Positions 16,833 to 50,935 of a stretch of DNA of 64,000 nucleotides are shown here, in pieces. This DNA is from Rathayibacter rathayi (GTDB lineage: Bacteria > Actinomycetota > Actinomycetes > Actinomycetales > Microbacteriaceae): NCBI RefSeq assembly GCF_004011095.1, contig NZ_CP028129.1:1736001-1800000 (forward strand), read 5' to 3'. Every line of letters starts with the position of its first letter. Within the stretch, counting starts at the first letter, position 1. The notes under the pieces are model-generated. The model searched no databases. It saw only the letters and a program-made list of their open reading frames with translations, and was not told where the DNA came from. Both the position numbers and the translations under genes were made by a program.

Positions 16833-17797
16833 CGGAGGGCCCTCGCCTTCGGGTCGAGCGCGTCGCGGAGCGACTCGCCGAGGAGGATGAAGCTCAGCAC
16901 CGTCACCGTCAGGGCAATCGACGGATAGATCAACGTCTGCGGGTTGGTGCGCAGGTCGCGCTGCGCCTGGCTGATGTCATTGCCCCAGGACATCACGGAG
17001 CCGGGCAGGCCGACGCCGAGGAAGGACAGCGTCGCTTCCGCGGTGATGGCCGCACCGAGCGAGATCGTCGTGACCACGATCACGGGGGCGATCGAGTTCG
17101 GCAGGACGTGCCGGAACAGGATGGCCATGCGCGAGAGGCCGGTCGCGGTCGCGGCGCCGACGAAGTCGGACTGCTTCACGCGCAGAACCTCGGAGCGCAG
17201 GACACGCGCCGTCGTCGGCCACGCGAACGCGCCGATCGCCAGGGCGATGACGAACACGTTCCGGTGCTCGGAGAACACGGACATGATGACGACCGCGGCG
17301 AGGATGTAGGGGATCGAGAAAAAGATGTCGCCCAGGCGCATGATCACGGTGTCGACCCAGCCGCCGAAGAAGCCGGCCAGTGCACCGCCGATGACCCCGG
17401 ACATCGTCGTGATGACGATCACGATCAGGCCGACGGTCAGCGAGGTGGACGTGCCGTGGATGATCCGCGAGAACACGTCGCACCCCTGCTTGGTATAGCC
17501 GAGCAGGCTGCCGTCGCCGGGGCCCTGGTTGCTGAACGAAAGCGCGCACTGCCGCGGGTCCACCGAGGTGAACAGGCCCGGGAAGAGCGCGACCGCGATC
17601 ACGACGAGGATCAGGACGCCAGAGATCCAGAACATCGGGCGCTTGCGCAGATCCCGCCACGCATCGGTCCACAGGTTGCTCGGCTTCTCGTCGAGGCTGA
17701 CCGCGTCGACCGACGCGATCGGCGTCTCCTCGAGCGGCGCCACGAAGTGGTCGATGCGGCGGGCCTTCTGCGCGCCGCCGGTGAACTCATTTGGCAT
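16829..17797 (-). CDS. Peptide ABC transporter permease (DppC-like)
   Basis: A 322-residue permease with a long cytoplasmic N-terminus (about 50 residues), six membrane segments, and the family EAA loop around GAATATGLSRMAILFRHVLPN, which contacts the ATPase. SWGNDISQAQRDLRTNP near the C-terminus is typical of the DppC/OppC group. It overlaps the upstream permease gene by 11 bp and the ATPase gene by 4 bp, so all three are tightly coupled. Confidence 0.9.
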   Translation of the reverse strand: MPNEFTGGAQKARRIDHFVAPLEETPIASVDAVSLDEKPSNLWTDAWRDLRKRPMFWISGVLILVVIAVALFPGLFTSVDPRQCALSFSNQGPGDGSLLGYTKQGCDVFSRIIHGTSTSLTVGLIVIVITTMSGVIGGALAGFFGGWVDTVIMRLGDIFFSIPYILAAVVIMSVFSEHRNVFVIALAIGAFAWPTTARVLRSEVLRVKQSDFVGAATATGLSRMAILFRHVLPNSIAPVIVVTTISLGAAITAEATLSFLGVGLPGSVMSWGNDISQAQRDLRTNPQTLIYPSIALTVTVLSFILLGESLRDALDPKARALR

Positions 17798-18716
17798 AGC
17801 GGATCCTCGGGTCGAGTACGGCGTAGAGCAGGTCGACGAGGATGTTCACCACGAGGTAGAACAGCACCATGACCGTGACGAAGGAGACGACGGTCGGTCG
17901 CTCCCCTCGGATGATCGCCTGGTAGAGCGTGTTCCCGACTCCGGGAACGTTGAAGATGCCCTCGGTCACGGTCGCGCCGACGATCAGGAGGCCGAAGTCG
18001 GCTCCGAACTGCGTGGTGACCGGGATGAGCGAGTTGCGCAGGACGTGCACGGGGATGACGCGGCGTCGCGAGAGCCCCTTGCTGTACGCGGTGCGCACGA
18101 AGTCCGAGCCGGCCGTCTCGATGACCGAGCCGCGCGTGAGGCGGATAGCCGAGGCGACCACGAACAGGGCCAGCACGATCGCGGGCAGTAGCAGCCTCTG
18201 GAACGACGCGTCGGCTCCGACGGTCGGAGGGAACCACCCCAGCTGGATCGCGAAGAACGACTGCGCGATGAAGCAGAGCACGAAGATCGGCACCGAGACG
18301 AGAAGGAGGCTGACGACCAGCGCACTCGCGTCGAAGAAGCTGCCCTTGCGCAGACCACTGATGAGGCCAATGGTCAGCGCGAGAACGATCTCGATGATGA
18401 TCGCCATCATCGCCAGCGTCAGAGTGACCGGGAAGGTGCGGGCGAGGATCTCGTTGACGGACTGACCCGAGAACGAGATGCCGAAGTCGCCGCGGACGAC
18501 GCCTCCCAGGTAGTACAGGTACTGCACGAAGAAAGGCTCGTTCAGGTGGTACTGCTCCTCGAGGCGGGCGAGGAGCGCGGGGCTCGGCGTCTTGTCGCCG
18601 AAGAGCGACAGGAGCGGGTTCCCCGGCATGGAAAAGACCATGAAGTAGATGAGGAACGTGGTGCCGATGAGCACGGGGACGGCTTGCAGGATGCGTCGGA
18701 CGATGTAGGCGAGCAT
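17787..18716 (-). CDS. Peptide ABC transporter permease (DppB-like)
   Basis: A 309-residue permease that starts MLAYIVRRILQAVPVLIGTT, the typical DppB/OppB N-terminal helix. PGNPLLSLFGDK and LARLEEQYHLNEPF form the first periplasm-side loop. The EAA loop is FVRTAYSKGLSRRRVIPVHVLRN. It pairs with the DppC-like permease and follows the binding protein after a 127-bp gap that contains a strong hairpin. Confidence 0.9.
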   Translation of the reverse strand: MLAYIVRRILQAVPVLIGTTFLIYFMVFSMPGNPLLSLFGDKTPSPALLARLEEQYHLNEPFFVQYLYYLGGVVRGDFGISFSGQSVNEILARTFPVTLTLAMMAIIIEIVLALTIGLISGLRKGSFFDASALVVSLLLVSVPIFVLCFIAQSFFAIQLGWFPPTVGADASFQRLLLPAIVLALFVVASAIRLTRGSVIETAGSDFVRTAYSKGLSRRRVIPVHVLRNSLIPVTTQFGADFGLLIVGATVTEGIFNVPGVGNTLYQAIIRGERPTVVSFVTVMVLFYLVVNILVDLLYAVLDPRIRYAK

Positions 18717-18777
18717 GTCAGCCCAGCCGGTTCCGGAGTCGCATGGATGGGGACCTCATTCGATTGTGACCGAAACA

Positions 18778-18830
18778 GGGCGCTTCGCCCGTGCCGCGAC
18801 CGGGTGGCCGACAGCACGGGCGAAGCGCCC
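18778..18830 (-). terminator. Intercistronic hairpin between binding protein and permease genes
   Basis: Perfect 17-bp arms (18778-18794 and 18814-18830) enclose a 19-nt loop, 13 bp after the stop codon of the solute-binding protein. In ABC import operons such a hairpin commonly gives partial termination or 3' end protection, so that binding protein outnumbers permease. That function is inferred from position. Confidence 0.65.
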
Positions 18831-18843
18831 CAGTGGTTCGAGC

Positions 18844-20463
18844 TTAGTTCTTAGTGATCTCGTAGTAGAGCGGCACCGAGTTCCAGCCGAACTCGACGTT
18901 CGACACGTTCTCGCTGAAGCCACCGGTCACGTTCGCGTACCACAGGGGCAGCGAGGGGAGGTCCTGGAGGAGGATCTCCTGCGCCTGCTGGAACGTCGCG
19001 TTCGCAGCGCTGGCGTCGGCGTTCGACAGGCCCTGCTGGACGAGCGCATCGAACTCGGGGTTCGAGTAGTCGCCGTCGTTGGAGGAGCCGCCGGTCACGT
19101 ACAGGGGGCCGAGGAAATTGTTCAGGCTCGGGTAGTCGGCCTGCCATCCGGTGCGGAACGCGGTCGCGATCGAACGATCGACGATCTTGGTGCGCGCCTC
19201 GGCGAAGGTCGGGTACGCGTCGCCCTCAGCGTCGATGCCCAGCGTGTTCTTGATCGAGTTGGTCACCGCGTCGACCCAGCCCTGGTGGCCGCCGTCGGCG
19301 TTGTACGCGATCTTGAAGGTGCCGTCCCAGGGGCTGATCGCGTCGGCCTGTGCCCACAGCGCCTTGGCCTCGTCGGGGTTGTACGCGAGCACATCGGCGC
19401 CGGAGAGGGCGTCGCTGTAACCGTCGATCACCGGGGAGGTGAAGTCGGAGGCGGGGGTGCGGGTGCCCTCGAAGATCACGTCGGTGATCTCCTTGCGGTC
19501 GAAGGACATCGAGATGGCCTGGCGGCGGAGCTTGCCCTCCTCTCCGCCGAAGTGCGCGAGACGCTCCGGGATGGTGAACGACTGGAACACGGCCGAGGGC
19601 TGGTTCACGGCGCGGTCGCCGAGGTCACTTTCGAAGGTGCCGAAGGCGGAGTCCGGGATCTGGTCGATGACGTCCACGTTGCCGGCGAGCAGGTCGGCGT
19701 AGGAGGCGTCCTGGCTGGCGTAGAAGACGATCTTCAGTCCGCCGTTCTGGACCTTGCGGGGACCGGTGTAGTCCTCGTTCTTGGCCAGCTCGATTTGAAC
19801 GTCGTGCTGCCAGGCGTTGTCCCCGGCCAGCTTGTAGGGGCCGTTGCCGATCGGGTTCTGGCCGAACGCGGCCAGGTCGTCGAACGCGACGGCGGGGAGC
19901 GGGTAGAACGCCGAGTAGCCGAGGCTGATCGGGAAGTCCGACTGCGGGGTCTTCAGCGCCACCGTGAACGAGGTGTCATCGACGACCTTCAGACCGGTCA
20001 GCTCGCTGTCCTCGGTGTCGCTGAAGCCCTCGATGTTCGAGAAGAACGAGGAGCTGATCTGATTGTTCGAGAGCTTGGCGCCGTAGTTCCAGGCGTCGAT
20101 GAACGAGCTGGAGGTGACCGGGTCGCCGTTGGTGAAGGTCAGGCCCGACTTGATCGTGATGGTGTAGTTCTGCGCGTCGCTGGATTTGATGGACTCGGCG
20201 ACGTCGTTCTTGGGGGCGCCCTTGGCGTCATAGTAGACCAGGCCCGCGAAGATCTCGCCGAGGATCTTGCCACCACCAGTCTCGTTGGTGTTTGTCGGGA
20301 CCAGCGGGTTCTGGGGCTCGGAGCCGTTGGTGGATATGATCGCGGCGGCGTCGCCTCCCGATGCACCCCCGCCCGTGTCGTTCGAGCTGCTGCAGCCGGC
20401 CAGGACCAGCGTGCTCGCGGCGACGAGCGCCAGAGCCCCGAATCCGTAACGTCTGATATTCAC
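18844..20463 (-). CDS. Peptide ABC transporter substrate-binding lipoprotein
   Basis: A 539-residue SBP_bac_5 (DppA/OppA) type lipoprotein. The start is GTG 20463 (VNIRRYGFGALALVAAS), with GGAGGAATT just upstream; the open frame extends further but lacks support. The lipobox LVLAGC puts the lipid-bearing Cys near residue 26, followed by a Ser/Gly linker. Family signatures include GEIFAGLVYYD, GLTFTNGDPVTSSSFIDAWNYGA and FPISLGY. It captures oligopeptides outside the membrane for the downstream permeases. First gene of the operon. Confidence 0.9.
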   Translation of the reverse strand: MNIRRYGFGALALVAASTLVLAGCSSSNDTGGGASGGDAAAIISTNGSEPQNPLVPTNTNETGGGKILGEIFAGLVYYDAKGAPKNDVAESIKSSDAQNYTITIKSGLTFTNGDPVTSSSFIDAWNYGAKLSNNQISSSFFSNIEGFSDTEDSELTGLKVVDDTSFTVALKTPQSDFPISLGYSAFYPLPAVAFDDLAAFGQNPIGNGPYKLAGDNAWQHDVQIELAKNEDYTGPRKVQNGGLKIVFYASQDASYADLLAGNVDVIDQIPDSAFGTFESDLGDRAVNQPSAVFQSFTIPERLAHFGGEEGKLRRQAISMSFDRKEITDVIFEGTRTPASDFTSPVIDGYSDALSGADVLAYNPDEAKALWAQADAISPWDGTFKIAYNADGGHQGWVDAVTNSIKNTLGIDAEGDAYPTFAEARTKIVDRSIATAFRTGWQADYPSLNNFLGPLYVTGGSSNDGDYSNPEFDALVQQGLSNADASAANATFQQAQEILLQDLPSLPLWYANVTGGFSENVSNVEFGWNSVPLYYEITKN

Positions 20464-20632
20464 TAATTCCTCCAGTGATGTGGGGGCGCGCGAGAAGTGG
20501 TTTTCCCTGACGCGTGGGGTGCCGTGCGCGTGGCGACGGCGGCGGCGGCGCACGAGACTGGTGGCCGTCGCGCGGATGCCGTGTTCGAGACTATGTATTC
20601 ATGCGCTATCTGCACAAAAGCAGGTGACAACC

Positions 20633-33066: not shown

Positions 33067-33155
33067 TCCACGCCGATCGGGAATGTCGGAGGTGTCCGGC
33101 ACTGTTTTCCCGTCCGTACCCCGCATCCGCGACCGCGAGTCGAGCCGTCGATGCG

Positions 33156-33200
33156 CCCCTTACGCCGATCCCCCTTACGCCGATCCCCCTCGCACCGATC
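33156..33200 (+). repeat. 15-bp tandem repeat upstream of the MFS gene
   Basis: Three units of 15 bp, CCCCTTACGCCGATC, CCCCTTACGCCGATC and CCCCTCGCACCGATC, end 24 bp before the MFS start codon. A second repeat type lies in the same gap. No promoter could be placed with confidence between them. Confidence 0.8.
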
Positions 33201-33223
33201 CCCCCGACGACCGGAGAACACCT

Positions 33224-34702
33224 GTGACCGAGCGCAGCACCCTTCCCGCAACGCGGCCCGCCGCACCCGCCGCCGCCGCCACGACCCTCGAACCGCGCAG
33301 CCGCCTGGTGATCAGCCTCCTGCTGGTGTCGGCGTTCGTCGTGATCCTCAACGAGACGATCATGAGCGTGGCCCTGCCGGATCTCATGCGTGACTTCGGC
33401 GTCGAGGCGCACGTCGGCCAGTGGCTCTCGACCGCGTTCATGCTGACGATGGCCGTCGTCATCCCGATCACCGGATACCTGATCCAGCGGCTGCACACCC
33501 GCACGCTGTTCGCCGCCGCGATGATCCTGTTCAGCCTCGGCACGCTCACCGCCGCGCTCGCGCCGACCTTCGCCGTTCTCCTGGCCGCCCGTGTGGTGCA
33601 GGCCGGCGGTACGGCGATCATGATGCCGCTGCTGATGACGACCGTGATGACGCTGGTGCCACCGGCGATCCGCGGCCGAATGATGGGCAACATTTCGATC
33701 GTGATCTCGGTGGCGCCGGCCGTCGGACCGACGATCTCGGGCGTCATTCTCAACTTCCTCGGCTGGCGCTGGATGTTCTGGATCGTGCTGCCGATCGCGA
33801 TCGGGGCGCTGCTGCTGGGTCTGCGGAAGGTCGAGAACGTTACGGAGCCGCGCGCCATCCCGATCGACTCGCTCTCGGTGGTCCTCTCGGTCTTCGGCTT
33901 CGGCGGTCTGGTCTACGGCCTGTCGAGCCTGGGCGAGGGCGGAGCAGCGGTCCTCGCGCCGTGGATCCCCTTCGTCGTCGCGGGGCTGGGCCTCGCGGGC
34001 TTCATCGCGCGCCAGCTGCTGCTCCAGCGCACCGATCGCGCCCTGCTCGATCTGCGCACCTTCTCCTCGGCGAACTTCACCATCGTGATCGCGATGATGG
34101 CCGTGAGCATGTCGGCACTGTTCGGCACGCTGATCCTGCTGCCCCTCTACACACAGAACGTGCTGGGGCTCACCCCGCTGGAGACCGGGCTACTGCTGCT
34201 CCCGGGCGGGCTGCTGATGGGTCTGCTCGCGCCGTTCGTCGGCCGCGGGTACGACCGCTTCGGGCCTCGAGTGCTGCTCGTGCCCGGGTCGATCGTGGTC
34301 GCCGGCGCGCTCTGGGGGTACACCCTGCTGGCGGCGGACTCGTCGCCCTGGTTCGTCCTCTTCCTGCACATGACCCTGAGCCTCGGGCTGGCCTTCGTCT
34401 TCACGCCGCTGTTCACGGCCGGGCTGGGCTCGGTCCGCCCCTCGCTTTACTCGCACGGCAGCGCGATCATCGGCACCGTGCAGCAGCTCGGCGGCGCGGC
34501 GGGCACGGCGCTGTTCGTCACCGTCCTCTCGATCCGCGCGGCGGAACTGGCGCAGGGCGGCGCCGACCAGGCGGCCGCCTACGCCGGCGGCATCCACTCC
34601 GCTTTCCTGTGGGGCGCCTCGATCGCGACCGTCGCGATCGTCGCCGCGTTCTTCGTCCGGCGTCCGGCCGAGTCGGACGCGCCGCTGCCGATGGCGCACT
34701 GA
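33224..34702 (+). CDS. MFS transporter, DHA2 (14-helix) drug:H+ antiporter type
   Basis: A 492-residue membrane protein with about fourteen hydrophobic segments. Motif C-like sequence is in APAVGPTISGVILNFLGWRWMF, and the N-terminal helix has NETIMSVALPDLMRDFGV, the DHA2 pattern. GTG 33224 is chosen for CCGGAGAACACC just upstream; a longer frame from 33083 runs through tandem repeats and is less likely. It lies 105 bp before the Pls-type synthetase on the same strand, so it may export the polymer or confer resistance, but ordinary drug efflux is equally possible. Confidence 0.85.
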   Translation: MTERSTLPATRPAAPAAAATTLEPRSRLVISLLLVSAFVVILNETIMSVALPDLMRDFGVEAHVGQWLSTAFMLTMAVVIPITGYLIQRLHTRTLFAAAMILFSLGTLTAALAPTFAVLLAARVVQAGGTAIMMPLLMTTVMTLVPPAIRGRMMGNISIVISVAPAVGPTISGVILNFLGWRWMFWIVLPIAIGALLLGLRKVENVTEPRAIPIDSLSVVLSVFGFGGLVYGLSSLGEGGAAVLAPWIPFVVAGLGLAGFIARQLLLQRTDRALLDLRTFSSANFTIVIAMMAVSMSALFGTLILLPLYTQNVLGLTPLETGLLLLPGGLLMGLLAPFVGRGYDRFGPRVLLVPGSIVVAGALWGYTLLAADSSPWFVLFLHMTLSLGLAFVFTPLFTAGLGSVRPSLYSHGSAIIGTVQQLGGAAGTALFVTVLSIRAAELAQGGADQAAAYAGGIHSAFLWGASIATVAIVAAFFVRRPAESDAPLPMAH

Positions 34703-34807: not shown

Positions 34808-37800
34808 GTGACAGAGACGGCCCGCCCCCAGGACGTGCTCGACGCAGCAGCCGCGACGACCCCGCCGCGCACACTGATCGATGTCCTCCGCGACACCGCC
34901 CAACGCCACCCCGACGCCTCCGCCCTCGAGGACCCGGCCGGCGCCCTGAGCTATCGGGAGCTGCTGGCCCGCACCGTGCAGCTCGCCGCCGAACTCGCCG
35001 CAGCCGGCGTCCGCCAAGGCGACCGCGTCGGCGTCCGGATGCCCAGCGGTTCGCGCGAGCTGTACCTCGCGATCCTGGCCGTCCTCGCCGCCGGAGCCGC
35101 CTACGTCCCGGTCGATGCGGACGACCCGGAGGAGCGCGCCCGCCTCGTCTTCGGCGAGGCCGCCGTCCGCGGCGTGATCACCGGCTCCGGACGCTTCGAG
35201 CGGAGCGGGACCGAGGAGCCGGCCGCGCGCCTGTTCACCGCGACCGCGCCGCACCCGAGCACCGCGTCGATCCCGCTGCTGCAACCGCCCACGCTCGAGG
35301 ACGACGCCTGGATCATCTTCACTTCCGGCTCCACCGGCACCCCGAAGGGCGTGGCGGTCAGCCACCGCTCGGCCGCCGCGTTCGTCGACGCCGAGGCCCG
35401 CCTGTTCCTGCAGGAGGAGCCGCTCGGCCCCGGCGACCGCGTGCTGGCCGGTCTCTCGGTCGCCTTCGACGCCTCCTGCGAGGAGATGTGGCTCGCCTGG
35501 CGACACGGCGCCTGCCTGGTCCCGGCGCCGCGCTCGCTCGTACGCAGCGGCATGGACCTGGGCCCGTGGCTGACCACGCACGGCATCACGGTGGTCTCGA
35601 CGGTGCCGACGCTCGCCGTGCTCTGGCCCGCGGAGTCACTCGAGAACGTCCGCCTGCTGATCTTCGGCGGCGAGGCTTGCCCTCCCGAACTCGGCGAACG
35701 CCTCGCTGTCGAGGGCCGCGAGGTGTGGAACACCTACGGCCCGACCGAGGCCACCGTCGTCGCCTGCGCCGCCCCACTCGGCGGGCCCGCCCCGGTGCGC
35801 ATCGGTCTGCCGCTGGACGGCTGGCGACTCGCCGTCGTCGACGCGGAGGGACGGCGCGTCGGCGAGGGCGAGGTCGGCGAGCTGATGATCGGCGGAGTCG
35901 GGCTCGCCCGCTACCTCGACCCGGTCAAGGACGCCGAGAAGTATGCGCCCGCGCCGCTACTGGGCTGGGAGCGCGCCTACCGCTCCGGCGACCTCGTGCG
36001 CTTCGAGAGCGCCGGCCTCGTCTTCCAGGGACGCGCCGACGACCAGGTAAAGCTCGGCGGCCGCAGGATCGAGCTCGGCGAGGTCGAGGCGGCGCTGCAG
36101 GGGCTTTCCGGAGTCTCGGGGGCGGCCGCCGCGGTCCGCACCACCGCAGCGGGCAACCAGGTCCTCGTCGGCTACCTCGCCCTGACCGGCGGTCGCGCGC
36201 TCGACCGCGACGCCGCGCTGACGCGCCTGCGCGAGGAGCTACCCGCCTCCCTGGTGCCCCTGCTGGCCGTCGTCGACGAGCTGCCGACCCGCGTCTCCGG
36301 CAAGGTCGATCGCGCCGCGCTCCCCTGGCCGCTCGCCGACGTCACCGAAGATGCGTCCCTGGACCCCGAGGAGGCCTGGCTCGCCGGGCTCTGGTGCGAC
36401 GTGCTCGGCGTGCCGGTCGATGAGCGCGCGAACTTCTTCGATCTCGGTGGTGGCTCCCTCGCCGCCGCCCAGCTCGTCGCGCGGATCCGCGAGCGCGACC
36501 CCGATTTCACGGTCGCCGACGTCTACGCCCACCCGCGCCTGGCCGCGATGTCCGCCGAGATCCAGAGCCGCGCGACCGGCGCCGCGGAGGTCTCCGCCCA
36601 CCGGATCACCCCGGTCCCCCTCCGGATGCGCGTGCTACAGACCCTCCTCGGCGCACCGCTGCTCGCGCTCGGTAGCGCCCGCTGGGTCACCGCGATCCTC
36701 ACCGTCACCGCCGTGCTCAACCTGGTGCCGGGCTTCAGCTGGCTGCCCACCGCCCCGCTCGCCGCCCTGATCCCCGCGTTCGCGCTCTTCCTCACGCCCT
36801 TCGGGCGGATGGGGCTCACCGTCCTAGCCGCTCGCACCCTGCTGCGCGGGATTCGCGCGGGCGATCATCCGCGCGGCGGCAGCGTGCACCTGCGGCTGTG
36901 GCTGGCCGAGCAGATCGCGTTCCAGCTGAAGGCCGTGAGCCTCGCCGGGGCCCCCTGGGTCGCCTACTACGCCCGCGCGCTCGGCGCCCGGATCGCCGCC
37001 GACGTCGACCTGCACTCGCTCCCGCCGCTGACCGGCATGCTCACGCTCGGCCGCGGCGCGGCGATCGAGCCCGAGGTGGATCTCTCCGGCTATTGGATCG
37101 ACGGCGATGTCCTGCGCGTCGGCGCCGTCCGGGTCGGGGCCGGCAGCACGGTCGGGGCGCGCAGCACGCTGCTCCCCGGCGCTCGGATCGGCAAGCACGC
37201 GCAGATCGAGCCCGGCTCGGCCGTCTTCGGGCGGGTGCCGGCCGGGCAGCGCTGGGGCGGCTCCCCCGCCCAGCGGCTCGGCAGGGCCAACGCCGGATTC
37301 CCTGCGGAGCGTCCGGCGCGAGGTCCGGCGTGGGTCTGGGCCTACGGAGTATCGGCGGTCGGCCTCGCGGCGATCCCGGTGCTCGCCCTCGCGGCCGGAC
37401 TCGCGGTCGTTGCCCTGGCTGCACAGCACTCCGCCGACCTCGGCGCCGCGCTCGGGCCGTCCGTCGCGGCGCTCGTCCCCGCCGTCGTCGTCTCCGGAGT
37501 CGTCCTCGCCGCGCTCGTGGTCGTCCTCGTGCGCCTGCTCGGTCGGGGCGTCGAGCCGGGCACGCACCCGGTGCGCGGGCGGATCGGCTGGCAGGTGTGG
37601 TCGACGGAGCGGCTGCTCGACTCCGCGCGCGTCCTGCTCTTCCCGCTCTACTCCGGCCTGTTCACCCCGGTCTGGCTCCGGCTGCTCGGCGCGAGGGTCG
37701 GCCGCGACGTCGAAGCCTCCACCGTGCTGCTCCTGCCCGCGATGACGACCATCCGCGACGGCGCGTTCCTCGCCGACGACACGCTCGTCGCCTCCTACGC

Positions 37801-38743
37801 CCTCGGCGGCGGGTGGATGCGGCTCGCCCGCGCCGAGATCGGCGAGCGCGCGTTCCTCGGCAACTCCGGCATGGCGGCTCCCGGCCACACCGTGCCCGCC
37901 GGCGGACTAGTGGCCGTGCTCTCCTCCGCGCCGCGGAAGGCGAAACCGGGCTCGTCCTGGCTGGGGTCGCCGCCAGTGCGGCTGAGGCGCACCGTCCTCG
38001 AGGCGGAGTCGGCGCGCACCTTCCGCCCGGCGCGACGGCTTCGCGCAGCCCGCATCATCTGGGAACTCGGCCGCTTCGTCCCGGTGGTCGTCTCGATCGC
38101 GATCGGCCTCGGGGTCGTCGCAGGACTGCTCGCGCTGATCCTGGCGCTCGGCCCGGTCCTCGCCGCGCTCGCCGGCGGCGTGGTGCTCCTGGCCGCCGGT
38201 GCCCTCGCCGCGGCCGTCTCCACTGCCGCGAAGTGGCTCCTGATCCAGCGCGTCGAGCCGAGCGAGAAGCCGCTGTGGTGCTCCTTCGTCTGGCGGAGCG
38301 AGCTGGCCGACACCTTCACCGAGATGGTCGCCGCACCCTGGTTCGCCCATGCGGCCACAGGGACCCCGGCGCTGGTCTGGTGGCTGCGGAGCCTGGGCGC
38401 GCGGATCGGGCGCGGCGTCTGGTGCGAGAGCTACTGGCTCCCCGAAGCCGATCTCATCTCCCTCGGCGACGGCACGACCGTGAATCGGGGCTGCGTCGTA
38501 CAGACCCACCTGTTCCATGATCGAATCATGAGCATGGATCTCGTGAGCCTCGACGCCGGCGCCACCCTGGGCCCGCACAGCGTGATCCTCCCCGCCGCGC
38601 GGATCGCCGAGCACGGCACAGTCGGCCCCGCCTCCCTCGTCATGCGCGGCGAGCTGGTGCCCGCGGGCAGCCGGTGGAGCGGGAACCCGATCGGCCCGTG
38701 GCGTGAGGTGCGCGTGGCCGACTACCACGCGCCCATCGCGTGA
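34808..38743 (+). CDS. Pls/PosA-type membrane NRPS (poly-lysine-synthetase-like)
   Basis: A 1311-residue single-module peptide synthetase. Adenylation domain: A3 FTSGSTGTPKG (about 171), A4 AFDASCEEMW (about 219), A5 NTYGPTEATV (about 307), A7 YRSGDLVRF (about 390), and A10 lysine in RVSGKVDR (about 498). The carrier protein has its phosphopantetheine serine in DLGGGSLAAAQ (about 549). No condensation or thioesterase domain is present. From about 605 there are three pairs of membrane helices alternating with three related soluble domains that contain hexapeptide-like stretches (VGAGSTVGARSTLLPGARIG). That is the layout of epsilon-poly-L-lysine synthetase Pls (about 1319 residues) and PosA, which join amino acids through side-chain amines. 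The hand-aligned pocket reads D-A-E-S-I-G-T-V-V-K, pointing to a basic amino acid. GTG start after ACGGAG. Confidence 0.87.
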   Translation: MTETARPQDVLDAAAATTPPRTLIDVLRDTAQRHPDASALEDPAGALSYRELLARTVQLAAELAAAGVRQGDRVGVRMPSGSRELYLAILAVLAAGAAYVPVDADDPEERARLVFGEAAVRGVITGSGRFERSGTEEPAARLFTATAPHPSTASIPLLQPPTLEDDAWIIFTSGSTGTPKGVAVSHRSAAAFVDAEARLFLQEEPLGPGDRVLAGLSVAFDASCEEMWLAWRHGACLVPAPRSLVRSGMDLGPWLTTHGITVVSTVPTLAVLWPAESLENVRLLIFGGEACPPELGERLAVEGREVWNTYGPTEATVVACAAPLGGPAPVRIGLPLDGWRLAVVDAEGRRVGEGEVGELMIGGVGLARYLDPVKDAEKYAPAPLLGWERAYRSGDLVRFESAGLVFQGRADDQVKLGGRRIELGEVEAALQGLSGVSGAAAAVRTTAAGNQVLVGYLALTGGRALDRDAALTRLREELPASLVPLLAVVDELPTRVSGKVDRAALPWPLADVTEDASLDPEEAWLAGLWCDVLGVPVDERANFFDLGGGSLAAAQLVARIRERDPDFTVADVYAHPRLAAMSAEIQSRATGAAEVSAHRITPVPLRMRVLQTLLGAPLLALGSARWVTAILTVTAVLNLVPGFSWLPTAPLAALIPAFALFLTPFGRMGLTVLAARTLLRGIRAGDHPRGGSVHLRLWLAEQIAFQLKAVSLAGAPWVAYYARALGARIAADVDLHSLPPLTGMLTLGRGAAIEPEVDLSGYWIDGDVLRVGAVRVGAGSTVGARSTLLPGARIGKHAQIEPGSAVFGRVPAGQRWGGSPAQRLGRANAGFPAERPARGPAWVWAYGVSAVGLAAIPVLALAAGLAVVALAAQHSADLGAALGPSVAALVPAVVVSGVVLAALVVVLVRLLGRGVEPGTHPVRGRIGWQVWSTERLLDSARVLLFPLYSGLFTPVWLRLLGARVGRDVEASTVLLLPAMTTIRDGAFLADDTLVASYALGGGWMRLARAEIGERAFLGNSGMAAPGHTVPAGGLVAVLSSAPRKAKPGSSWLGSPPVRLRRTVLEAESARTFRPARRLRAARIIWELGRFVPVVVSIAIGLGVVAGLLALILALGPVLAALAGGVVLLAAGALAAAVSTAAKWLLIQRVEPSEKPLWCSFVWRSELADTFTEMVAAPWFAHAATGTPALVWWLRSLGARIGRGVWCESYWLPEADLISLGDGTTVNRGCVVQTHLFHDRIMSMDLVSLDAGATLGPHSVILPAARIAEHGTVGPASLVMRGELVPAGSRWSGNPIGPWREVRVADYHAPIA

Positions 38744-40065
38744 GCCCCGGCCTGATCGGGCTCGAGACGGCCGGCGACCCGGACGTCCCGGGCATCGGGA
38801 ACACCGGCTACCGCGTCGAGTCGTACACCCTCGACCTCGACTACCGCGTCGCCTCGAACCGGCTGGCCGGCCGGGCGACGCTGCACGTCCTCGCCCTCCA
38901 GCCGCTGCGGCGCTTCTCCCTCGACCTCTCCCGACTCCGCGTCGCCCGGGTGCGGATCGACGGGCGCCGCGCCCGCCATGAGCAGGCACCGCACAAGCTG
39001 CGGGTCACCCCGGCCGAACCCCTGGTCGCCGGCGAGCGCATCATCGTCGAGATCGACTACAGCGGCCACCCCGCCCCGCGCGCGAGCCACTGGGGCGAGC
39101 TGGGGTGGGAGGAATTGGCGGACGGCGTACTCGTCGCCTCGCAGCCCTCCGGCTCCTCCACCTGGTTTCCCTGCAACGACGATGTCGCAGAGAAGGCGCC
39201 CTACCGGCTCCGCGTCACGGCCGAGGAGGGCTACGCCGTGCTCGCGAACGGGGTACTCCTCGACTCGAGCGCTCGCTCGGGCCGCCGCACCTGGCTCTAC
39301 GAGCAGCGCGAGCCCACAGCCGCGTATCTCGCGTCGGTGCAGATCGGCCGGTACGTGCTCGAGGAGCGGGTACTCGCCGGAGTCGCGGTGACCCTCGCCC
39401 GTCCGGCCGCCCTGGCCGCGCGGGTCGCTCACGACTTCGCTCCGCTGGAACGCATGCTCGCCCTTTTCACCCGGCTCTTCGGGCCGTATCCCTTCGCCCG
39501 CTACTGTGTCGTCGTCACCGCGGACGAGCTCGAGATCCCGCTCGAAGCGCAGGCGATGGCCGTCTTCGGAGCGAACCACGCCGACGGCGGCGGCGGGTCG
39601 GAGCGCCTGATCGCGCACGAACTCGCGCACCAGTGGTTCGGCAACAGCGTCGGTATCGCCCGCTGGCGGCACATCTGGCTCAACGAGGGCTTCGCCTGCT
39701 ACGCCGAGTGGCTGTGGTCCGAGGAGTCGGGACGCGCTTCCGCGGACGCCTGCGCCCGCCGCCACCACGCGGTGTTGCGGGCTGCGGCGCAGGATCTGGT
39801 GCTCGCCGACCCCGGGCCGGTCGCACTGTTCGATGACCGCGTCTACAAACGCGGCGCGCTCACCGTGCACGCGCTGCGGCTCACCGTCGGCGACGAGCCC
39901 TTCTTCCGCCTTCTGCGCGCCTGGACCTCCCGCTACGCCTTCGCCGCCGTCACCGATGAGGAGTTCCGCGACCTCTGCACCGAGCTGCTCGGCGACGGGG
40001 TGGACGACCTGCTCGACGCCTGGCTCCTCGACGAGGAGCTGCCGCCGCTACCGCCCGCCCGCTGA
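38740..40065 (+). CDS. M1 family zinc metallopeptidase in the Pls cluster
   Basis: A 441-residue short M1 aminopeptidase: an N-terminal beta-sandwich (about 20-200) and a thermolysin-like domain with HELAHQW (His293, His297) and Glu316 in NEGFA, exactly 18 residues after the second histidine. The usual GAMEN motif is replaced by EIPLEAQAM. There is no signal peptide and no C-terminal helical domain. GTG overlaps the synthetase stop by 4 bp, so the two are co-translated. In poly-lysine producers a zinc aminopeptidase acts as polymer-degrading enzyme; this gene is a good candidate for that role, but it is an inference. Confidence 0.85.
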   Translation: MSPGLIGLETAGDPDVPGIGNTGYRVESYTLDLDYRVASNRLAGRATLHVLALQPLRRFSLDLSRLRVARVRIDGRRARHEQAPHKLRVTPAEPLVAGERIIVEIDYSGHPAPRASHWGELGWEELADGVLVASQPSGSSTWFPCNDDVAEKAPYRLRVTAEEGYAVLANGVLLDSSARSGRRTWLYEQREPTAAYLASVQIGRYVLEERVLAGVAVTLARPAALAARVAHDFAPLERMLALFTRLFGPYPFARYCVVVTADELEIPLEAQAMAVFGANHADGGGGSERLIAHELAHQWFGNSVGIARWRHIWLNEGFACYAEWLWSEESGRASADACARRHHAVLRAAAQDLVLADPGPVALFDDRVYKRGALTVHALRLTVGDEPFFRLLRAWTSRYAFAAVTDEEFRDLCTELLGDGVDDLLDAWLLDEELPPLPPAR

Positions 40066-40806
40066 GACCAGCGAGTCCGCGAGAGCGTCGCCGTGCTCGC
40101 GCCGCCAGCCGATGATCGGTCCGGCACCCGTGTCCCCCATCGGCCCCAGGGCGACGCTGACCCGCAGCGCCGGATCGAGCCGCGGTTCGGCCAACCGGAA
40201 GCGGACCTCGCCGATCCGCGCCTCTACCGCGTGCCGCGACTCGTGCACATGTACGCGGCGCGGGTCGAGCTCGAGTCCGCGGCCGTCCGCCTTCAGCGCG
40301 GCCTCGATCCGGGTCCAGTGCAGGACGGGGTCGGCGGGGCGCATACCGCCCGTCGCGAACGGCGCCCCCGCGATCCGCGTGATGTGCTCGTCGCGCTCCG
40401 ATGTCCCGAGGGACGGCTCAACGTCGACACCGACCACTCCTGCGCTGCTCGCCGCGACGACCACCGCGCCCGCGCAGTGCGCGATGCTCACCGAGAGCAG
40501 CTCCAGCGCGGTCTCCCGCCCCTCCAGGCGAGGCCGGCCGTGCGCTGCTCCGCAGCGCCTACAGCAGGCGACAACCCGCACCTCCGACGCGCGCGTGCCC
40601 GTGAGCTCGGCGGCGAGCATCCGCAGCAGCACCCGCCCGAAGACGAACCGCTCAGCCACCGGCGCGGCGACCGTGCTGGCGTAGCGCTCCCGCTCCGGTG
40701 CGCTCAGCAGCGGCAGCAGCCGTCGCGCATCCAGGGTCTGCTCATCCAGCGCCAGCCAGCGCAGGTGCACGCCGGGCAGCTCCGCGCCGATCCCCGACTC
40801 CCCCAT
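40048..40806 (-). CDS. Sfp-type 4'-phosphopantetheinyl transferase
   Basis: A 252-residue PPTase that converts apo to holo carrier proteins using CoA. Motifs: VVGVDVEP (the GVD magnesium site), and WTRIEAALKADG in place of WxxKEAxxKxxG, so the first lysine is isoleucine while Glu and the second Lys remain. A CxxC-like CCRRCGAAHGRP lies mid-protein, also common in this group. ATG 40806 follows GGGGGGAGA. It converges with the M1 gene, overlapping it by 18 bp. It is the natural activator of the Pls-type carrier domain. Confidence 0.82.
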   Translation of the reverse strand: MGESGIGAELPGVHLRWLALDEQTLDARRLLPLLSAPERERYASTVAAPVAERFVFGRVLLRMLAAELTGTRASEVRVVACCRRCGAAHGRPRLEGRETALELLSVSIAHCAGAVVVAASSAGVVGVDVEPSLGTSERDEHITRIAGAPFATGGMRPADPVLHWTRIEAALKADGRGLELDPRRVHVHESRHAVEARIGEVRFRLAEPRLDPALRVSVALGPMGDTGAGPIIGWRREHGDALADSLVSAGGR

Positions 40807-40828: not shown

Positions 40829-40972
40829 TCAGCGCCAGGTGTCGATCTGCGTGCCGTCGCGGCGGAGCAGCACCGTGTCATCGTCCTCGTCGAGCCCTCG
40901 CGCGTCAGCGGGCGTGAGCGTGCGGGGCAGCTCGGGCGTGAGGCGAAGGGCGTCGTGGGCAGTGTCGGGCAT
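40829..40972 (-). pseudogene. Short ORF resembling the N-terminus of polyphosphate kinase 2
   Basis: A 47-codon frame runs from ATG 40972 to TGA 40829 and ends ...DDDTVLLRRDGTQIDTWR. In PPK2 enzymes the region before the catalytic core typically reads 'DG-x2-DTWREGYPYDER', so this looks like a PPK2 start cut off by a stop codon right after DTWR. The rest of PPK2 is absent; the PPTase gene follows 22 bp on. A TAGCGT box 6 nt before the ATG would still give a leaderless transcript, so it might be an expressed small protein. The family match is from memory and rests on few residues. Confidence 0.4.
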
Positions 40973-47403: not shown

Positions 47404-49590
47404 TCAGCCGCAGGGCGTGAGCCGCGCGACCTCCTCCGAGAGAGTGGTCGGACCGCCCAGAAGGACGACCCGCTTCGCTCCGGACGTCGCGATATCCGTC
47501 AGGACCGCGCGAGGCACGCAGGTCGGCGGCACGGCGAACAGCGGGCTCGTTGAGTAGCCCGCCGCCGTGGCTCCGGCGAGCGCATCGGGGAAGTTCTCGC
47601 CCGTCGCCAGGAACACCGTCTTTGCGCTCGAGAAGGCGGCGCGGTTCAGCTGCTCCGAGGTGTCGTAGCGGTCGACGCCGCCGATCCGCGTGATCGTCGG
47701 CCCCGACAGGGAACTCTTGATCCCGTCGCTCACCGAGAGCGCGCTGCCCGCGATGGTCAGATTCTGGACCTTGAGGCCCGACACGATGGCCCGCGTGGTC
47801 GAGTCGGCACTACCGAGACCGCCGTTCACGAGGATGACGGGCGCGTCGACGGAGCCGGCCGCTGCGCTCGCACCGAGCGCGTCGGGGAACTTCTCACCGG
47901 TGGCGAGCCAGGCCCGCGCCGAACCTCCCGAGAACGCGTACTGGATGATCTGCTTCGACGTGTCGTAGCGGTCCTGGCCGCCGATGCGCTGCACCTGGGG
48001 GGAGAAGGATCGCAGCTGGTTCAGGAGGCCGTCGGCGACGCTCAGGGAGGAGCCGACGACCACGATCTTCGCGGGTTTGAGCCGGGCGAGCTCGTCGCGG
48101 ACGGGCTGCGACATCGAGTCGCGGTCGACCAGGAGGAGCGGTCCGCCCTGCTTGGCGGCGGCGGGGGCGGCGCTCAGCGCATCGGGGAAGTTCGCGCCGG
48201 TCGCGACGTAGACGACGGGGACATTGGCGCCAAAGACCGCCTTCGAGATCTCGACGGCGGTGCCCTGGCGATCAGTGCCGGCGAGGCGCGTGACGTCGAT
48301 TCCCGCGGACGTGCTCACGCTGGAGCAGCCGAGGTCCTTCGCGCCCGGACCTCGGGAGTCTCCCGAGCCCACCCACCGGTTCCAGTCGACGGAGTCGGCC
48401 GCGACGCACACCCGGTAGGTGCCCGGCGCAGAGGCCGGCGTCGTCGCTCCGAAGCCGTGGGCGCGGCCTGCGGCCGGGTAGTCGCCCGGGATGTCCCCGC
48501 GGTCGCCGTTCGCAGTCTGCGTGCGGACGGTGCGACTGCCGTCCGGGGCGATGACGGTGACCGTCGTCCTCAGTGCGGCCTGCTGCGTGGTCGGGTCGAC
48601 CGCCCAGCCGGACACGCTGAGGGTACTGCCCGAAATGCGCGGCGCATCGACGCGGCCGGCGGGCGCGATCCCGGCGTTCGCCAGGGTCCCATTCGGGTTC
48701 CAGTCGCTGAAGAGATACCAGAAGTTGATGTTGCCGTAGGTCGCACAGTTCGCGTCACCGGAGTTGGTGAGCGCGTAAGCGTTGGGCTGGTACGGCGTGT
48801 AGTAGTAGAGGTCGGCCGTCGCCTGGTTGCGGATGGTCACCGGCGAGGAGCCGCACGCGGTGCTCGGGGTGTACTGGATGTACGGCGTCGTACCCGGAGC
48901 GAAGGCGGTGAAGTTGGAGCCCGAGCCGGGCGGGTTGGCGTAGCGCTTAAACTGGCGGGCCGCGCTGTGGACCTGCGTGAAGAAACCGGCGGAGCCGGGG
49001 TCGCAGGCCGAGGTGTCCGGACAGTTGTACCCGGTCGCCTTGGCATAGTCGGCGGGGCTGGGATTCGTGGTGGTGACGAGGCTCCGCTCCTTCTGCACGA
49101 GGACGACGAGCGTCAGCGGGTTGATCCCGCAGGCCGCTCCGACGCGCGTGAAGATCGAGGCCGACGACTCGCTCCCCGAGCCCTGGTAGGCACTGCACAT
49201 CGCATCCGCCGCCTTCGACGGGGTCGCCTGCGAGAAGTCCTTAAGGCAGGGCATGCCGGCGTCGGTCGCGCACCGGCTGCCCTTCTCGTTCAGGAGCGAC
49301 TGCACCTGCCCGATGTTCAGCGCATCACCGTCGAAGAACTGTGCGTCGCTGATGATGAAGCCGGCGCGGAAGCTCCTCGTCTCCGAGGCGTCGTACTGCC
49401 TCGACTGGTCCGGGAGGCCGTGGTCGGCGCGATCCAGCGCCGGATCGAGGGAGCCGGTCTCGACCGAGACGCTCGATGGCGCGTCCTCGGCTGCGAAGGC
49501 GACGGTGAGCGGGACGACGGCGGTGCCGAGCCCAACGGCGAAGGCGAGCGCGGCAGTGAGCAGGCGCGACGAGCGATGGTGGTTCCCCAT
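47404..49590 (-). CDS. Secreted protein with three cell-wall-binding type 2 repeats
   Basis: A 728-residue exported protein. A Sec signal peptide (about 1-33, ending VAFA-AED) precedes an approximately 250-residue globular region with many cysteines, GFIISDAQFFDG and a QKERSLVTTTNPSPADYAKATGYN-like segment that recurs in Microbacteriaceae wall proteins (quoted parts are contiguous pieces of it). Next is a beta-sandwich region (SVSGWAVDPTTQQA...). The last ~300 residues are three CWB2 repeats, each with RLAGTDRQGTA/RIGGQDRYDTS, ATGxNFPDAL and VVVGSSLSV-type cores. It is probably anchored to the wall non-covalently. Enzymatic activity of the N-terminal region is uncertain. Confidence 0.82.
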   Translation of the reverse strand: MGNHHRSSRLLTAALAFAVGLGTAVVPLTVAFAAEDAPSSVSVETGSLDPALDRADHGLPDQSRQYDASETRSFRAGFIISDAQFFDGDALNIGQVQSLLNEKGSRCATDAGMPCLKDFSQATPSKAADAMCSAYQGSGSESSASIFTRVGAACGINPLTLVVLVQKERSLVTTTNPSPADYAKATGYNCPDTSACDPGSAGFFTQVHSAARQFKRYANPPGSGSNFTAFAPGTTPYIQYTPSTACGSSPVTIRNQATADLYYYTPYQPNAYALTNSGDANCATYGNINFWYLFSDWNPNGTLANAGIAPAGRVDAPRISGSTLSVSGWAVDPTTQQAALRTTVTVIAPDGSRTVRTQTANGDRGDIPGDYPAAGRAHGFGATTPASAPGTYRVCVAADSVDWNRWVGSGDSRGPGAKDLGCSSVSTSAGIDVTRLAGTDRQGTAVEISKAVFGANVPVVYVATGANFPDALSAAPAAAKQGGPLLLVDRDSMSQPVRDELARLKPAKIVVVGSSLSVADGLLNQLRSFSPQVQRIGGQDRYDTSKQIIQYAFSGGSARAWLATGEKFPDALGASAAAGSVDAPVILVNGGLGSADSTTRAIVSGLKVQNLTIAGSALSVSDGIKSSLSGPTITRIGGVDRYDTSEQLNRAAFSSAKTVFLATGENFPDALAGATAAGYSTSPLFAVPPTCVPRAVLTDIATSGAKRVVLLGGPTTLSEEVARLTPCG

Positions 49591-49693
49591 GATCGCGGAG
49601 TCTACGAGGCCGTGGGGCGACCTCGTGTCCTTCTTTTGGGGGGCATGGCGCGTCGATTCGAGGATGTCGGAGGTGCGTGGTGTCATCGGCGGC

Positions 49694-50935
49694 ATGGATG
49701 TCTCCTTCGCTCTCGGTCTGGTGGTCGGCGCGCTCCTCGCGGGAGTCGTCGCCGCACTCCTCGCCCGCTCCCGCACACCCGACGCCGCCCTCGCCCTCGA
49801 CCTCGCGACCACCCGCGCCCGCGCCGAGGGGCTGGAGGAGCGCCACGAGGCCGTCGTCGAGCAGCACCGTGAGCATCTCGGATCCGCGCGCGATCAGATC
49901 CGCGAGCTGCAGGAGCAGCTGCGCGTCGTTGCCGAGCGCGAGCGGCACGACGCGCGCATCCTGCAGACCCTCTCCCCCGTCGCCGAGAGCCTGCGCGGCA
50001 TGCAGGAGGCGGTGGGCCGGCTCGAGCGCGAGCGCGCCGCCCAGTTCGGCGCGATCACCGAGCAGCTGGAGGGCCAGCGGGCGGCGGGCGAGCAGCTCCG
50101 CTCGACCACCGAGACCCTCGCCACCGCGCTGCGCTCGACCACCAGCCGCGGCGCGTGGGGTGAGACCCAGCTCCGCAATGTCGTCGAGGCCGCAGGGCTC
50201 ACGCAGCGGGTCGACTTCGACGTGCAGTTCGGGCTCGAAGGAGAAGCAGGTCGCGGCCGGGCCGACATGGTGGTGCGCCTCCCCGGTGGCAAGGCGATCG
50301 CGGTCGACGCCAAAGTCCCGTTCGATGCGTACCTCGAGGCCAGCGCGATCCCCGCCGGGGCCGTCGGTGAGGAGGAGGCTCGACGCGCGGCGCTCCTGCG
50401 CGCCCACGTTCGCGCGCTCCGCGGCCATGTGGACGCGCTCGCCGCCCGCTCCTACTGGACGGGACTTGCGGCGAGTCCCGAGTTCGTCATCGCATTCGTG
50501 CCCAGCGAGCCGCTGCTCGCCAGCGCGCTCGATGCCGACCCGAGCCTGCTTGAGTATGCGTTCCGCAAGCGCGTGGCGCTCGCCTCGCCGGTCACCCTCT
50601 GGTCCGTACTCAAGACCGTCGCCTACACCTGGCAGCAAGACGTGCTCACCGACGACGCGAAACGTCTGCTCGACCTCGGCAAGACCCTCTATGCGCGGCT
50701 CGGCACGCTCGCCGACCACGCCGAGGGCCTGCGCCGCTCGCTCGAGAAGACGGTGGACTCCTACAACGCCTTCGCCGGCTCACTCGAGAGTCGCGTGCTC
50801 GTCACCGCACGCCAGTTCGACTCCCTCGACGAGTCGAGGGTCATCGCCCCGGTCGCCGGCGTCACCTCCTCCCCGCGCCGCCTGACCGCGGTCGAGCTGC
50901 TCACGGACGAGACGGATGGGGAACGGAACTCGTAA
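49694..50935 (+). CDS. rmuC: DNA recombination protein RmuC
   Basis: A 413-residue RmuC-family protein: a membrane-spanning N-terminus (ALGLVVGALLAGVVAALLA, about 5-23), a coiled coil (about 30-130, rich in E/R/Q), then the PD-(D/E)XK-like core with SRGAWGETQLRNVVEAAGL, GRADMVVRLPGGKAIAVDAKVPFDAYLEA (read in pieces), and FVPSEPLLASALD. RmuC restrains inversion at short repeats in E. coli. ATG 49694 is used; the ribosome site is weak. It diverges from the cell-wall protein gene with about 100 bp between. Confidence 0.85.
   Translation: MDVSFALGLVVGALLAGVVAALLARSRTPDAALALDLATTRARAEGLEERHEAVVEQHREHLGSARDQIRELQEQLRVVAERERHDARILQTLSPVAESLRGMQEAVGRLERERAAQFGAITEQLEGQRAAGEQLRSTTETLATALRSTTSRGAWGETQLRNVVEAAGLTQRVDFDVQFGLEGEAGRGRADMVVRLPGGKAIAVDAKVPFDAYLEASAIPAGAVGEEEARRAALLRAHVRALRGHVDALAARSYWTGLAASPEFVIAFVPSEPLLASALDADPSLLEYAFRKRVALASPVTLWSVLKTVAYTWQQDVLTDDAKRLLDLGKTLYARLGTLADHAEGLRRSLEKTVDSYNAFAGSLESRVLVTARQFDSLDESRVIAPVAGVTSSPRRLTAVELLTDETDGERNS

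What the first reader, a model, noticed from the sequence alone, without database searches (positions are those of the whole stretch)
34808..40806. Compact Pls/PosA-type cationic isopeptide cluster: synthetase, coupled M1 peptidase and own PPTase
Seen: a single A-PCP module without condensation or thioesterase domains, fused to six membrane helices and three tandem soluble domains (the architecture of epsilon-poly-L-lysine synthetase Pls and of PosA), GTGA-coupled to an HEXXH-x18-E aminopeptidase, with an Sfp-type PPTase converging on it and an MFS gene upstream. Known: this architecture makes epsilon-poly-lysine-like antimicrobial homopolymers in Streptomyces and relatives. Inference: this organism makes a short cationic side-chain-linked polymer with built-in activation and turnover. 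The product, chain length and bioactivity cannot be read from the sequence.
Basis: partly seen in the sequence, partly recalled or inferred. Interest (0 to 1): 0.85.

Follow-up and report, generated by a model that had tools for sequence, protein, structure and literature searches.

The report
Polylysine synthetase operon in Rathayibacter
A bacterium of the plant-associated genus Rathayibacter carries a compact set of genes that very probably makes epsilon-polylysine, a known natural antimicrobial polymer, next to a peptidase and an activating enzyme that usually accompany such genes in its family.

Summary
The 1311-aa protein at 34808-38743 is a full-length Pls/PosA synthetase (TIGR02353, 674 bits, cut-off 423). 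Its ten-residue A-domain pocket, DAESIGTVVK, equals that of S. albulus epsilon-poly-L-lysine (e-PL) synthetase, so lysine is the likely monomer. The GTGA-coupled M1 peptidase matches the known pls-pldII arrangement; the convergent gene has an Sfp PPTase fold. This is a new member of a known kind.

Three refinements came out. (1) In 149 Microbacteriaceae genomes a close M1 homologue occurs in 62 of 62 Pls+ and 0 of 87 Pls- genomes, the PPTase in 60 of 62 against 6 of 87. (2) The M1 here shows no signal peptide by hydropathy, whereas both Streptomyces homologues examined have a Tat-like one, so turnover may be cytosolic. (3) Across 22 family members (13 lysine-type, 9 others) the C-terminal part keeps one invariant histidine, in a QxHxxxD loop of the third repeat: a candidate condensation centre.

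The upstream MFS gene is loosely tied to the unit. Product, length and activity are unmeasured.

The parts
34808..38743 (+). pls: Pls/PosA-family synthetase, predicted epsilon-poly-L-lysine synthetase, 1311 aa
   Evidence: TIGR02353 674 bits, cut-off 423; best PDB match S. albulus Pls A domain 7wew, 616 bits
34850..36337 (+). Adenylation domain; pocket D221 A222 E225 S264 I285 G287 T309 V317 V318 K499
   Evidence: alignment to 7wew; code computed
36377..36559 (+). Carrier (PCP/T) domain; pantetheine serine S550
   Evidence: Pfam PP-binding; S550 in 199 of 199 aligned homologues
36632..38692 (+). NRPS_term_dom: six membrane helices and three repeats
   Evidence: TIGR02353 profile 1-695 of 695; model m0f180b87739e
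36962..37315 (+). Repeat C1
   Evidence: hhalign to C3, prob 99.1
37676..38011 (+). Repeat C2, with family-invariant D990 and N1019
38372..38701 (+). Repeat C3, with the loop Q1232-x-H1234-x3-D1238; H1234 codon 38507-38509
   Evidence: only histidine of the C-terminal part invariant in 22 of 22 family members, 26 of 26 after adding four
38740..40065 (+). M1-family peptidase, homologue of the PldII-position peptidase, coupled to pls by GTGA, no signal peptide seen
   Evidence: Pfam M1; 44% to the M1 next to pls in Streptomyces sp. NBC_01454; N-termini
40048..40806 (-). Sfp-type 4'-phosphopantetheinyl transferase (alternative start at 40881)
   Evidence: model and PDB fold search; D128, W164, E168, K172 invariant in 34 of 34 rows
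33083..34702 (+). DHA2-type MFS exporter upstream; link to the unit uncertain
   Evidence: kept without pls in genome G150

Best explanation
An e-PL biosynthesis unit. The A domain activates L-lysine (inferred from the pocket). The PPTase arms S550 of the carrier domain (inferred from fold and co-occurrence). The membrane-anchored C-terminal part, three repeats that resemble hexapeptide acyltransferases, moves the lysyl group from its pantetheine thioester to a side-chain amine, repeatedly, to give epsilon-linked polylysine (family function; the linkage is inferred from characterised members). The most likely catalytic centre is the C3 loop QxHxxxD (inferred). The co-translated M1 peptidase hydrolyses epsilon-polylysine, here perhaps from inside the cell, as disposal, length control or self-protection (inferred). 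The confidence given is for the e-PL unit as such; the C3 site and the cytosolic M1 are each less certain.
For: TIGR02353 over its full length; A domain 616 bits to S. albulus Pls 7wew with an identical ten-residue code; the same code in 80 of 80 genome loci and 114 of 118 proteins over 1100 aa; M1 downstream on the same strand in 80 of 80 pls loci, 76 of them with the earliest possible start overlapping or within 100 bases of the pls stop; M1 in 62 of 62 Pls+ and 0 of 87 Pls- Microbacteriaceae; PPTase in 60 of 62 against 6 of 87; within 13 genera that hold both states, 14 of 15 against 2 of 14; published e-PL production from a Corynebacterium pls (PMC8117764, Results read) and published pls-coupled pldII (PMC9223678, passages).
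Against: No product data. C. variabile itself made no e-PL under the tested conditions although its gene works in S. coelicolor, so this unit may be silent. Of 7 lysine-type plasmid-borne pls loci, 2 (L097, L138) have no M1 match in the 3.2 and 4.2 kb read downstream. Genome G150 keeps the PPTase without pls and M1. Other PPTase-like genes exist in the genome. In G065 and G123 the PPTase lies nearer a second Pls copy than the copy beside M1. The C3 loop is poorly modelled (pLDDT under 50).
Confidence: 0.85

Rival explanations
1. The enzyme makes a different cationic polymer (ornithine, diaminobutyrate or beta-lysine), for instance because Rathayibacter walls use diaminobutyrate (recalled).
For: The family is functionally diverse: fetched relatives carry the codes DMEHNGTVSK, DFECLSAVTK, DLEDIGTVVK and DSECYGGVTK; the Streptomyces NBC_01527 member sits next to a diaminobutyrate aminotransferase and an aspartate kinase.
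Against: The window code is identical to S. albulus Pls; position 2 is Ala as in lysine enzymes, and Met in PosA (PMC10522769); the neighbour is M1, not Dab genes.
Confidence: 0.08
2. The unit is intact but not used as a secreted antimicrobial: e-PL stays at or in the cell (envelope charge, attachment, polyphosphate or DNA binding) and a cytosolic M1 recycles it.
For: M1 without a signal peptide by hydropathy; pairing with M1 in 62 of 62 Pls+ Microbacteriaceae; native silence of C. variabile pls.
Against: The characterised S. albulus enzyme's polymer is secreted (PMC9223678 passages); distribution is patchy, 62 of 149 genomes, unlike a core envelope function.
Confidence: 0.3
3. The PPTase is a neighbour by chance and serves the genome's other NRPSs.
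For: Other NRPS-like regions at G000:C1:899916-910351 and elsewhere; G150 keeps the PPTase without pls; 6 of 87 Pls- genomes have a match.
Against: 60 of 62 Pls+ genomes have it, 55 of 62 within 6 kb; the contrast holds inside 13 genera; PPTase genes also lie directly downstream of Pls/PosA genes in 2 of the 10 distant plasmid loci fetched, Rhizobium and Sphingomonas.
Confidence: 0.2
4. The catalytic site lies in C1 (H736, E754, E756, D765, D767) rather than in C3.
For: H736, E754, E756, D765 and D767 are invariant in 199 of 199 mostly close homologues.
Against: In the 9 non-lysine members H736 is kept in 1, E754, E756 and D767 in 0, and D765 is Glu in 5 and otherwise not acidic; Q1232, H1234 and D1238 are kept in 9 of 9.
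Confidence: 0.2

Closest known systems
Epsilon-poly-L-lysine synthetase Pls (Streptomyces albulus; PDB 7wew for the A domain)
   Same: Architecture, pocket code DAESIGTVVK (read from the 7wew alignment), coupled peptidase gene downstream
   Different: Rathayibacter host; PPTase at the 3' end; M1 without the Tat-like N-terminus seen in two Streptomyces loci; adjacent MFS
Corynebacterium variabile Pls (PMC8117764)
   Same: Pls plus a peptidase in an operon in a coryneform actinobacterium; lysine pocket
   Different: No PPTase partner is mentioned: the paper's main text has 0 occurrences of 'phosphopantethein' and of 'Rathayibacter'
PosA, delta-poly-L-ornithine synthetase of Acinetobacter baumannii (PMC10522769)
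   Same: A-PCP-six helices-three repeats; the C3 QxHxxxD loop in an A. baumannii homologue that carries the published PosA code (L127)
   Different: Pocket DMEHNGTVSK; L127 is about 33% identical to the window protein and has no M1 match in the region fetched
PldII, e-PL-degrading peptidase of S. albulus (PMC9223678, passages)
   Same: Translationally coupled to pls, similar length (1404 bp against 1326)
   Different: PldII is reported outside the membrane; the window M1 shows no export signal by hydropathy

Membership tests
Pls/PosA family (TIGR02353) | Terminal domain model over its full length above the curated cut-off | tested here: met
   674 bits, cut-off 423, profile 1-695 of 695
Pls/PosA family (TIGR02353) | A-PCP without C or TE domains, then six helices and three repeats | tested here: met
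Epsilon-poly-L-lysine synthetase (Pls) | Lysine-type A-domain pocket | tested here: met
   DAESIGTVVK, identical to 7wew
Epsilon-poly-L-lysine synthetase (Pls) | Coupled peptidase gene of the pldII position | tested here: met
   GTGA overlap; M1 44% to that of Streptomyces sp. NBC_01454, whose pls is annotated as such and overlaps its M1 by 4 bases. That the window M1 degrades e-PL is untested
Epsilon-poly-L-lysine synthetase (Pls) | Makes epsilon-linked polylysine | not testable with these tools
   needs expression and mass spectrometry
PldII peptidase | Metallopeptidase motif (M1 HEXXH-x18-E) | tested here: met
   read; Pfam M1. S. albulus PldII itself was not compared: its sequence was not in hand
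PldII peptidase | Located outside the membrane | tested here: inconclusive
   no hydrophobic N-terminal segment (15-residue mean at most 0.47), which speaks against export; a hydropathy threshold, not a trained predictor, and location was not measured
Sfp-type PPTase | Sfp fold | tested here: met
   Foldseek to 4mrt E 1.3e-12, TM 0.64/0.71
Sfp-type PPTase | Catalytic residues and W-x-x-K-E-A-x-x-K motif (motif recalled) | tested here: inconclusive
   D128, W164, E168, K172 invariant in 34 of 34 rows, but the Lys before E168 in the consensus is Ile in the window protein

The most novel reading that the evidence does not exclude
A three-gene polymer unit in which the peptidase works in the cytosol as an obligate partner of the polymerase, the PPTase is dedicated to it, and polymerisation runs at a single acyltransferase-type site (C3 QxHxxxD with C2 D990/N1019) inside a one-chain pseudo-trimer whose other two repeats have no conserved histidine at that place. 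That would explain how an enzyme without a condensation domain joins amino acids: an acetyltransferase-like fold using a carrier-bound aminoacyl group in place of acetyl-CoA.
Probability: 0.35. Interest if true: 0.65.

Novelty: new member of a known kind. Interest (0 to 1): 0.42.

Why it matters
The cluster itself is a known type, so its presence in Rathayibacter mainly extends the range of predicted epsilon-polylysine producers. The testable extras matter more. How Pls-type enzymes form the isopeptide bond without a condensation domain is unresolved (the PosA authors state that no structural information exists for the C-terminal domain), and one family-wide histidine gives a direct mutational test. 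The close pairing with a peptidase that shows no export signal suggests that the polymer has to be controlled inside the cell, which the picture of a secreted antimicrobial with external self-protection does not cover.

Tried and rejected
Poly-diaminobutyrate as the product: considered because of wall chemistry (recalled), rejected on the pocket code. Pls as a core gene of Microbacteriaceae: first guess after the homologue list; the tally of 62 of 149 over the cut-off shows it is patchy. M1 pairing across the whole Pls/PosA family: rejected; 0 of 10 distant loci (L127-L136) had an M1 match, and 2 of 7 lysine-type plasmid loci had none in the flank read (codes of the seven). Universal PPTase neighbour: rejected; 37 of 80 loci, all 37 among the 41 that I classed as Micrococcales from the record titles, 0 of the other 39. 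Loss of pls in genome G159: not supported; its pls runs off a contig end. Promoter or terminator signals: none found. C3 alignment to a named acetyltransferase histidine: not reached; the printed HMMER alignments were mainly to gamma carbonic anhydrases, LpxA-like chains and one hexapeptide transferase, so equivalence with the acetyltransferase histidine is recalled knowledge plus fold, not a shown alignment. The structural second look covered mainly C2.

Rows dropped: two proteins under 1100 aa (P0042, P0088) left out before the counts; 4 of the 37 PPTase loci (L013, L028, L054, L079) not put into alignment A2; the distant locus L136, annotated as a shorter Pls/PosA gene, left out of the alignment.

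Literature searches. 'Rathayibacter' with 'polylysine' gave 0 papers; PPTase with poly-lysine synthetase terms gave 1 paper, seen as a listing only, and 0. They cover only the open-licence library.

Full report
WHAT IS THERE. The window is G000:C1:1736001-1800000 of a 3.10-Mb single-contig genome. The closest named homologue of the synthetase's C-terminal part (residues 600-1311) is from Rathayibacter sp. AY1E6 (95%); R. toxicus is at 86%. So this is a Rathayibacter but, by that distance, not R. toxicus. The reported genes are real: synthetase 34808-38743, M1 peptidase 38740-40065, PPTase 40048-40806 on the other strand, MFS 33083-34702. Upstream lie nadA, an FAD-binding protein in the nadB position, nadC and a NifS-type cysteine desulfurase.

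SYNTHETASE. TIGR02353, the Pls/PosA model, covers residues 609-1295 at 674 bits. The A domain's best solved relative is S. albulus Pls 7wew, 616 bits. From that alignment and by position the pocket code is DAESIGTVVK, the same in both. The positions were placed by motif comparison with GrsA (recalled). The same columns returned DMEHNGTVSK for a fetched A. baumannii homologue (L127), which is the published PosA code, so the placement is checked. The code is the same in 80 of 80 genome loci and in 114 of 118 proteins over 1100 aa; the other four differ at one position. The PosA paper reports Ala at position 2 for lysine enzymes and a gain of lysine activity on M218A (Results parts 2-4 of 4 and Discussion read).

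M1 PARTNER. S. albulus pldII is 1404 bp and translationally coupled to pls (PMC9223678, passages); C. [quoted passage not shown] The passages I saw do not name the family as M1. The link comes from Streptomyces sp. NBC_01454, where a gene annotated pls overlaps an M1 metallopeptidase gene by 4 bases whose product is 44% identical to the window's M1. In 80 of 80 loci from the genome collection (the best 80 of 593, themselves a capped list) an M1 lies downstream on the same strand. In 76 of 80 its earliest possible start overlaps or lies within 100 bases of the pls stop; in L049, L056, L064 and L085 it is 298 to 2107 bases away. In 149 Microbacteriaceae genomes of at least 90% completeness, Pls over the cut-off occurs in 62, and an M1 match of at least 394 bits in exactly those 62 and none of the other 87. 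Three Pls- genomes have distant M1 matches under 170 bits. Exceptions lie further away: L097 and L138, both with the lysine code, have no M1 match in the 3.2 and 4.2 kb read downstream.

WHERE M1 WORKS. The window M1 begins VSPGLIGLETAGD with no hydrophobic segment. Of 94 M1 loci scanned (80 collection, 11 genus, the window, L096, L098), none reached a 15-residue hydropathy mean of 1.9; only L085 (1.65) and L096 (1.59) passed 1.5. L096, a Streptomyces, has a twin-arginine start (CSRRALIRGVALMPLAA), and so does a second Streptomyces, L137 (CSRRALLRGAALLPLAA). That fits PldII being reported outside the membrane, and suggests a cytosolic enzyme in Rathayibacter and most of the other actinobacteria scanned. 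This is a threshold on hydropathy, not a trained signal-peptide predictor; the cut of 1.9 was too strict to see the Streptomyces signal, so 1.5 is the informative one.

PPTASE. Sequence libraries barely see it, but the model matches Sfp and the aminoadipate-semialdehyde dehydrogenase phosphopantetheinyl transferase 2cg5. An iterative profile found it near pls in 37 of 80 loci, all among the 41 Micrococcales loci (order assigned by me from the titles). With a 34-row profile (A2: the window and 33 of those 37), 60 of 62 Pls+ and 6 of 87 Pls- Microbacteriaceae match at 1e-20, and 55 of 62 have it within 6 kb. Related genomes are not independent, so the Fisher value (5e-32) overstates. In the 13 genera with both states the split is 14 of 15 against 2 of 14, p 2e-5. 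The profile was built from pls neighbours, which favours this result. Of 10 distant Pls/PosA loci fetched from plasmids, 2 (Rhizobium, Sphingomonas) have an annotated PPTase gene immediately downstream. Against strict dedication: G150 keeps it without pls, and in G065 and G123, which hold two Pls copies, it lies nearer the copy that is not beside M1.

A NATURAL DELETION. Of 15 genomes of the genus, 12 have full-length Pls, one (G160) a 444-residue piece at a contig end, and one (G159) a 5' piece that runs off a contig end; neither of these two assemblies holds a close M1, as expected if the rest of the locus fell into an assembly gap. G150 has neither pls nor a close M1; its MFS and PPTase genes converge with 62 bases between the matched ends, at 92% and 76% identity. 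The MFS match there spans one in-frame TAG, whose meaning I did not follow. Most simply, pls and M1 were lost as one piece while MFS and PPTase stayed. MFS adjacency is seen in the genus (12 of 12 loci) and in L009; in the other collection loci MFS matches are absent or weak (at most 141 bits against 695).

VERDICT. A new member of a known kind with good support, and two testable refinements (cytosolic turnover, C3 histidine). The interest is moderate because a pls-peptidase operon in coryneform actinobacteria, and pls homologues in Microbacterium, are already in print.

Noticed in passing
L122 (G150:C6:138000-152000), around 7674-7737: A close relative lacks pls and M1; MFS and PPTase, their neighbours here, lie next to each other there.
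   Followed up: yes
L129 and L131: Pls/PosA genes of Rhizobium and Sphingomonas plasmids have a PPTase gene immediately downstream, a repeat of the pairing far from actinobacteria; their pocket codes are DLEDIGTVVK and DMEHNGTVTK.
   Followed up: partly
G065 and G123 (unnamed Microbacteriaceae of one genus): Two Pls/PosA copies over the cut-off in one genome; in both genomes M1 sits beside the higher-scoring copy and the PPTase lies nearer the other.
   Followed up: no
G000:C1:2126732-2127388: Second PPTase-like gene, 43% identical to the window PPTase; one of two searches counted a TGA inside its matched span. Further PPTase-like genes near 338436, 364223 and 514841.
   Followed up: no
G000:C1:899916-910351: Large NRPS-like open frames (2115 and 2201 aa) elsewhere in the genome, not examined.
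   Followed up: no
window 15096-20553 (-): Opp-type oligopeptide ABC transporter genes about 14 kb upstream of pls; a link to oligolysine uptake is only a thought.
   Followed up: no
L133, L134: Pls/PosA members with codes DFECLSVVTK and DFECLSAVTK sit next to diaminobutyrate aminotransferase genes: gene context tracks the substrate pocket.
   Followed up: partly
L139 (Embleya plasmid): Lysine-type pls whose matched span holds one in-frame stop in this record.
   Followed up: no
window 47404-49812 (-): 802-aa protein with three cell-wall-binding CWB2 stretches, otherwise unassigned.
   Followed up: no
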